Positions 21,542 to 21,613 of a stretch of 64,000 bases of DNA are shown here, piece by piece. This DNA is from a virus: IMG/VR virus record IMGVR_UViG_3300025467_000007, positions 62,001 to 126,000 of that record. The stretch is one strand, 5' to 3'. Position 1 is the stretch's first letter. Each line of letters starts with the position of its first letter. The notes under the pieces are model-generated. The model had not been told where the DNA came from and searched no databases. It saw nothing but the letters and a program-made list of their open reading frames with translations. A program made the position numbers and the translations under genes.

Positions 21542-21613
21542 TTAACGATTCATTACATAAAGGGTAACTTCAAAGCCAAAGCGCATTTCAGTTGCTTGAG
21601 GTTTCGTCCACAT
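21542..21613 (-). CDS. pqqA: PqqA, pyrroloquinoline quinone precursor peptide
   Basis: A 23-codon gene: ATG at 21613, 7 bases after AAGGAG, stop TAA at 21544-21542. The peptide begins [10 protein letters not shown] and ends EVTLYVMNR. Length and pattern match bacterial PqqA (for example the Klebsiella form, also 23 aa, with EVTLY near the C-terminus): Glu15 and Tyr19, the two residues cross-linked by the radical-SAM enzyme PqqE to make PQQ, are in register. No other pqq gene is in the window, so host PqqB-E would be needed. A terminator follows at 21498-21520 and a structured leader precedes it. It suggests phage support of host PQQ-dependent alcohol oxidation. Confidence 0.93.
   Translation of the reverse strand: [23 protein letters not shown]

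What the first reader, a model, noticed from the sequence alone, without database searches (positions are those of the whole stretch)
21542..21613. Phage-encoded PqqA, the PQQ precursor peptide
A 23-codon gene with a strong ribosome-binding site encodes a peptide of PqqA length, with Glu15 and Tyr19 in register in an EVTLY context and a terminal NR. PqqA's only known job is to be cross-linked by PqqE and trimmed to PQQ, the cofactor of methanol and other alcohol dehydrogenases. Because each PQQ molecule consumes one PqqA peptide, extra pqqA copies could raise PQQ supply with host PqqB-E. A phage that adds only the consumable precursor would be an economical metabolic intervention. It also hints at a methylotrophic or alcohol-oxidising host.
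Basis: partly seen in the sequence, partly recalled or inferred. Interest (0 to 1): 0.95.

Follow-up and report, generated by a model that had tools for sequence, protein, structure and literature searches.

The report
Phage PQQ-precursor gene with RNA leader
A virus of methanol-eating bacteria carries a tiny gene for PqqA, the peptide that its host turns into the redox cofactor PQQ, and in front of it sits a previously undescribed folded RNA, shared with the hosts' own pqqA, that probably controls how much of the peptide is made.

Summary
On the minus strand, 21613-21542, a 23-codon gene with a good ribosome-binding site encodes a genuine PqqA (Pfam 40.3 bits, cut-off 21.1; NCBIfam 36.8, cut-off 20), with Glu15 and Tyr19 in register. 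It sits downstream of regA in a 160-kb T4-like phage record and is syntenic in 19 of 21 close relatives with enough flank. Relatives show purifying selection (pN/pS 0.18). Every pqqA-bearing phage with a named host infects Methylophilales, and at least 120 viral contigs carry pqqA, usually unannotated. Phage PqqA was reported before (Lake Baikal, 2020), so the gene is not a first.

New: the gene comes with its control region. First, an operator-like palindrome shared with host pqqA promoters. Second, a structured leader RNA (21645-21706) with strong covariation, absent from Rfam. It also precedes one pqqA copy in 20 of 150 host-family genomes. A blind scan of viral contigs for the leader alone gave 60 matches; 54 run straight into pqqA.

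Most likely mechanism: the phage tops up the one consumable substrate of host PqqB-E under host-type control. The leader is a candidate translational riboswitch; its ligand, possibly PQQ, is untested.

The parts
21542..21613 (-). pqqA, 23 aa: [23 protein letters not shown]
   Evidence: purifying selection among syntenic copies
21621..21627 (-). Shine-Dalgarno AAAGGAG
21628..21647 (-). hairpin GTTTATAAATTTTTATAAAC directly upstream of the Shine-Dalgarno (second stem of the leader)
   Evidence: predicted; across 62 distinct leaders this stretch folds better than its shuffles (mean z -3.96) and has at least 5 bp in 49
21645..21706 (-). core of the structured leader RNA; helix GTTAGA (21696-21691) with TCTAAC (21660-21655); conserved CUCAAG (21701-21696) and GAUCUG (21654-21649)
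   Evidence: covariation; covariance model 49.7 bits here, next best in the window 12.5; blind scan
21714..21729 (-). hairpin GTAGGGGAAACTCTAC with a GAAA loop at the likely 5' end of the transcript; similar ones stand in several relatives, not in the host leaders
   Evidence: by eye; not tested statistically
21737..21742 (-). possible -10 element TATAGA
   Evidence: by eye only; weak
21763..21779 (-). operator-like site ATTAATACTTTTAACTA, 166 nt before the ATG, a variant of the palindrome upstream of host and phage pqqA
   Evidence: 14.1 bits; with a motif trained without this phage group 10.7 bits, reached by 9 of 1000 random windows
21495..21521 (-). terminator-like hairpin AAAAGGGATCCTAGAGGTCCCTTTTTT after pqqA
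   Evidence: by eye; different hairpins with a T run stand at the same place in relatives. The simple scan did not list it
21797..22240 (-). regA (translation repressor), upstream neighbour in the T4-type replication cluster
   Evidence: PHROG 242, E=1.7e-59
21025..21483 (-). downstream neighbour, homing-endonuclease-like protein
   Evidence: weak PHROG matches, E=1.3e-4

Best explanation
This is a self-contained, host-type regulated pqqA cassette in a T4-like phage of a Methylophilaceae host. SHOWN: a full-length PqqA is encoded, is under purifying selection, and carries a conserved upstream operator-like site and a covarying leader RNA, both shared with host pqqA genes; the phage has no other PQQ gene that I could find. 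INFERRED: during infection the peptide is made, cross-linked at Glu15-Tyr19 by host PqqE with PqqD, trimmed and matured by host PqqB/C and protease to PQQ, so that methanol oxidation by host (or, in some phages, phage) methanol dehydrogenase keeps running. INFERRED and less certain: the leader is a translational switch. Its conserved 5' CUC can pair with the GAG of the Shine-Dalgarno, closing a junction around the covarying helix and the second hairpin. A bound signal, most simply PQQ or a precursor, would set PqqA synthesis by demand.
For: Family. Specificity: in 50,697 phage records tblastn finds pqqA in 12: nine isolates of Methylophilales, one spring-water phage, and two 'Acinetobacter phage' records that are host pqqABCD operon DNA. 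One copy in each of 38 viruses, against 1-12 per host genome in 24 methylotrophs. Different phage kinds carry it: P19250A/Venkman, MEP301, the Zobellviridae MEP401/402, Melnitz (Kyanoviridae), this T4-like lineage. Selection: pN/pS 0.18 at pS 0.66 over 20 distinct syntenic copies, E15, Y19 and N22 invariant. Operator: motif trained on viral upstreams finds 93/117 of them against 7/1026 controls, and in hosts, not used in training, 95/127 against 10/1072. Leader: 99.3% of 138 cells pair, 5 of 6 pairs with changes on both sides, 0/500 shuffles, slid versions at most 58%. In hosts all 21 strong matches (20 genomes plus one more) are followed by pqqA after 40-46 nt. Blind viral scan: 60 matches, 54 followed by pqqA after 31-58 nt. 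One pqqA phage also carries a PQQ methanol dehydrogenase.
Against: No expression, processing or PQQ measurement. The peptide differs from the commonest host form [23 protein letters not shown] at three positions (A6Q, M18L, K23R); L18 next to Y19 is seen in 8 of 123 viral but none of the sampled host copies, though the host pattern fixed M18. Most phages and most host pqqA copies lack the leader, so it is not required for function. No ligand is known; CUC pairs with the Shine-Dalgarno in the predicted fold of only 38 of 62 leaders, and those pairs hardly vary, so they give no covariation support. The fold of the window leader alone is not unusually stable (z -0.78).
Confidence: 0.75

Rival explanations
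1. Decoy: phage PqqA binds PqqD/PqqE and jams or diverts PQQ synthesis to shut down host metabolism.
For: A short substrate-like peptide could compete; L18 next to Y19 in this copy departs from the sampled host peptides.
Against: The whole processing core is conserved under purifying selection; 18 sampled viral copies are letter for letter the commonest host peptide; host-type operator and leader are kept; one such phage brings its own PQQ-dependent methanol dehydrogenase.
Confidence: 0.06
2. Passenger: host pqqA picked up by chance, without benefit.
For: It is small, and host genomes hold up to a dozen copies that could be captured.
Against: pN/pS 0.18; presence in unrelated phage groups; synteny in 19 of 21 relatives; promoter-like and leader elements kept.
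Confidence: 0.03
3. The leader is not a small-molecule riboswitch but a protein-binding site, a thermosensor or an mRNA-stability element.
For: Only one gene family follows it and no ligand is known. In the window it follows regA, whose T4 counterpart is a translation repressor (general knowledge). A ROSE-type thermosensor exists in another of these phages.
Against: Host genomes carry the same leader before their own pqqA, so RegA is unlikely to be its partner. Conserved unpaired CUCAAG and GAUCUG around a freely varying helix look like a binding pocket.
Confidence: 0.35
4. Host DNA mistaken for virus (contamination).
For: Two database 'phage' hits are indeed host operons, and IMG/VR contigs are not curated.
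Against: Here pqqA lies 183 nt from regA, beside clamp-loader genes of a T4-type replication cluster, and in cultured, sequenced phage isolates.
Confidence: 0.01

Closest known systems
PqqA, PQQ precursor peptide (PF08042, TIGR02107)
   Same: Passes both curated cut-offs; E-x3-Y in register; 23 aa.
   Different: In a phage, alone, with no pqqB-E nearby; solitary copies are however usual in Methylophilaceae (PMC4109929).
PqqA in Lake Baikal Methylophilaceae virus VP_266 (Coutinho et al. 2020, PMC7678222)
   Same: T4-like virus of Methylophilaceae with PqqA; same idea of boosting methanol oxidation.
   Different: Their virus also encodes methanol dehydrogenase; the passages read do not mention an operator, a leader RNA or other phages. 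This phage has no PQQ dehydrogenase in the record held.
Unannotated pqqA in cultured methylophages P19250A, Venkman, MEP301, MEP401/402, Melnitz
   Same: Same peptide family, one copy each.
   Different: Not annotated as PqqA in the records, and four papers on the OM43 phages do not mention phage pqqA. The leader RNA was not found in the five of these read as loci.
c-di-GMP riboswitch next to a pqqA copy of Methylophaga nitratireducenticrescens GP59 (PMC12530212)
   Same: A cis-regulatory RNA at a pqqA gene.
   Different: A different RNA: no Rfam family, c-di-GMP classes included, matches the leader here.

Membership tests
PqqA | Scores above the curated family cut-offs | tested here: met
   40.3 vs 21.1 bits; 36.8 vs 20 bits
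PqqA | Glu and Tyr three residues apart, in register with the profile | tested here: met
   E15 and Y19; profile matched end to end; invariant in 20 syntenic copies
PqqA | Cross-linked by PqqE/PqqD and matured to PQQ | not testable with these tools
   needs biochemistry
Phage auxiliary metabolic gene | In a true phage genome, with host homologues | tested here: met
   T4-type neighbours, synteny, host copies
Phage auxiliary metabolic gene | Alters host metabolism during infection | not tested
   no expression or metabolite data
Riboswitch | Conserved leader structure supported by covariation | tested here: met
Riboswitch | Consistent association with genes of one pathway | tested here: met
   54 of 60 blind viral matches and all 21 strong host matches are followed by pqqA
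Riboswitch | Binds a small ligand and changes expression | not testable with these tools
   in-line probing and reporters needed
Any Rfam 15 family | Leader reaches a family's gathering score | tested here: not met
   best is RAGATH-32, 11.4 bits vs 41.8; none at the leaders of 17 loci

The most novel reading that the evidence does not exclude
The leader is the aptamer of a new riboswitch class that senses PQQ or a biosynthetic intermediate and sets PqqA translation by demand, in marine OM43-like bacteria and in their phages, which have kept or captured the complete operator-leader-pqqA cassette.
Probability: 0.35. Interest if true: 0.92.

Novelty: new variant of a known kind. Interest (0 to 1): 0.77.

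Why it matters
That makes a clear prediction about PQQ supply as a bottleneck in infected methanol-oxidising cells, testable in cultured phage-host pairs (Venkman, Melnitz, MEP401). The leader RNA is a concrete candidate for the first riboswitch devoted to PQQ synthesis, found with the same architecture in host and phage, and easy to test because it is about 60 nt long.

Tried and rejected
PHROGs, PDB sequences: no match to the peptide. The search for related loci refuses a 23-aa query, so degenerate DNA patterns were used; residues fixed by those patterns are by construction invariant, so selection was measured on copies found through regA/gp44 instead. First hand-made search for the leader with a low threshold gave many chance hits (81 of 1390 controls); replaced by alignment, covariance model and blind scan. 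A first regular expression missed the host leaders and was corrected. Operator upstream of xoxF: none above background in seven regions, so it looks pqqA-specific in this small test. T4 late promoter TATAAATA: 14 in the window against 6.8 expected, all on the gene strand, but the nearest (21488-21495) is downstream of pqqA. CAAG/CYTG pseudoknot considered; it would share G with the proven helix and is not constant, so not claimed. Idea that RegA is the leader's ligand: rejected since host genomes carry it.

Full report
WHAT IS THERE. The named stretch holds, on the minus strand, a 23-codon gene, [23 protein letters not shown], with AAAGGAG 7 nt before the ATG. Pfam PqqA scores 40.3 bits (cut-off 21.1, E=2.8e-10) and the NCBIfam equivalog TIGR02107 36.8 bits (cut-off 20). 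The window is part of a 160,126-base virus record with no other PqqA. The neighbours are T4-type: clamp loader subunits and regA upstream, a homing-endonuclease-like gene, an S21-like protein and Hsp20 downstream.

IT BELONGS TO THE PHAGE. Relatives were found through regA and gp44, not through pqqA. Of 22 loci with regA at least 79% identical, 19 carry pqqA 82-647 nt downstream of regA; one of the other three ends too soon to tell, and two lack it within the flank held. None of ten loci at 78% or below carries it. Over 20 distinct copies from these searches pN/pS is 0.18 with pS 0.66; W2, P5, R11, G13, F14, E15, T17, Y19 and N22 do not change.

HOW WIDESPREAD. In 50,697 phage records 12 match: nine isolates, all on Methylophilales hosts (P19250A, Venkman, MEP301, MEP401, MEP402, four Melnitz strains), one spring-water phage, and two mislabelled Acinetobacter records that are a host pqqABCD operon. 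The regions read show it unannotated, or with only a hypothetical protein there. Two named Methylophilales prophages (HIM624-A, phiMB624-A) and some newer isolates were not seen, so 'all methylophages' is not shown. Some of those contigs could be host DNA; the isolates and the regA synteny do not depend on them.

LITERATURE. PqqA in a T4-like Methylophilaceae virus, together with methanol dehydrogenase, was reported from Lake Baikal (PMC7678222), and pqqA is listed among virus-encoded genes in reservoir sediments (PMC13188868). Papers on Melnitz, MEP301, MEP401/402 and Venkman do not mention phage pqqA. Methylophilaceae carry 3-12 pqqA copies and usually one of the other pqq genes (PMC4109929); my count in 24 methylotroph genomes is 1-12. 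Each of 38 viruses has exactly one. No virus of 39 has PqqE above its cut-off; one (G035, 72 kb) has a full PQQ methanol dehydrogenase.

OPERATOR. A 17-base motif, ATTAATGATTTTCctTA, learned from viral upstream regions, also found without a seed, is present at 12 bits or more in 93 of 117 viral regions against 7 of 1026 controls. Applied to host upstream regions, not used in learning, it finds 95 of 127 against 10 of 1072. Host versions are palindromes such as TCATGAAAATCATGA. In the window the site is 21763-21779 (14.1 bits); with this phage group left out of the learning it still scores 10.7 bits, reached by 9 of 1000 random windows. The regulator is unknown.

LEADER RNA. Between operator and gene lies a conserved element: CUCAAG-NNN-GAC...UCUC-NNN-Y-GAUCUG. 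In an alignment of 23 leaders, three of them from host genomes, the 6-bp helix pairs in 137 of 138 cells; five of six pairs have changes on both sides; none of 500 shuffles comes near, and slid versions pair at most 58%. RNAalifold finds the same helix and an outer C-G/A-U pair. Rfam has no such family. A covariance model finds the window element at 49.7 bits, the next best place at 12.5. In 150 Methylophilaceae genomes it finds one strong copy in each of 20, all 0.9-1.4 Mb in size, i.e. OM43-like (inference from size and marine sample names), and none elsewhere in 399 genomes of the order beyond three of the same. All strong host matches lie 40-46 nt before one pqqA copy.

BLIND TEST. Patterns giving only the conserved letters, neither pairing nor pqqA, were run over 2.9 million viral contigs: 60 matches. 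In 58 the three variable pairs are complementary; 54 are followed by pqqA after 31-58 nt, one by a broken pqqA, one by the contig end, four by neither. At least ten different helix sequences occur. This supports both the helix and the tie to pqqA.

MECHANISM. PqqA is consumed once per PQQ (established biochemistry of PqqE/PqqD; general knowledge), hosts amplify only pqqA, and phages add only pqqA. The simplest reading is substrate top-up for host PqqB-E so that methanol oxidation lasts through infection. The leader lies next to the Shine-Dalgarno; in 38 of 62 distinct leaders the predicted fold pairs the Shine-Dalgarno with the 5' CUC, closing a junction of the covarying helix and a second hairpin (mean z -3.96 against mononucleotide shuffles). 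That suggests translational control, perhaps feedback by PQQ. It is inference: those pairs are nearly invariant and no ligand was tested.

VERDICT. Observation confirmed, interpretation supported, gene not a first. The addition of this study is the generality, the shared operator and a new structured leader RNA.

Noticed in passing
L431 (G035:C1:30000-45000) 3990-5864 and 5944-8784: A 72-kb virus contig with pqqA also encodes a PQQ methanol dehydrogenase (624 aa) directly followed by a molybdopterin formate-dehydrogenase-like alpha subunit (946 aa): possibly two steps of methanol oxidation in one phage. Curlin-like repeat proteins lie upstream.
   Followed up: partly
L080 1445-1510: A ROSE_3 thermosensor RNA above its Rfam gathering score in a viral contig that carries the pqqA leader.
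   Followed up: no
window, minus strand: 14 TATAAATA (T4 late promoter type) sites, all on the gene strand, against 6.8 expected on both.
   Followed up: no
window 20418-20687 and 19196-19747: Phage S21-like ribosomal protein and Hsp20 close to pqqA.
   Followed up: no
window 20678-21019: Small protein with a signal-peptide-like start and Gly/His/Tyr-rich repeats (read from the sequence), no PHROG match.
   Followed up: no
CAKLQF020000010.1 105210-111275 (L241): Deposited as Acinetobacter phage MD-2021a, but the stretch is a host pqqBCD(E) operon with ppk nearby: likely bacterial DNA under a phage name.
   Followed up: partly
L132, L135, L190 upstream of the second pqqA: In OM43-like hosts a second pqqA follows the leader-controlled one within about 200 nt.
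   Followed up: no
L448 12323: Leader followed by a pqqA broken after MRFGL (frame lost): a decaying or mis-assembled copy.
   Followed up: no
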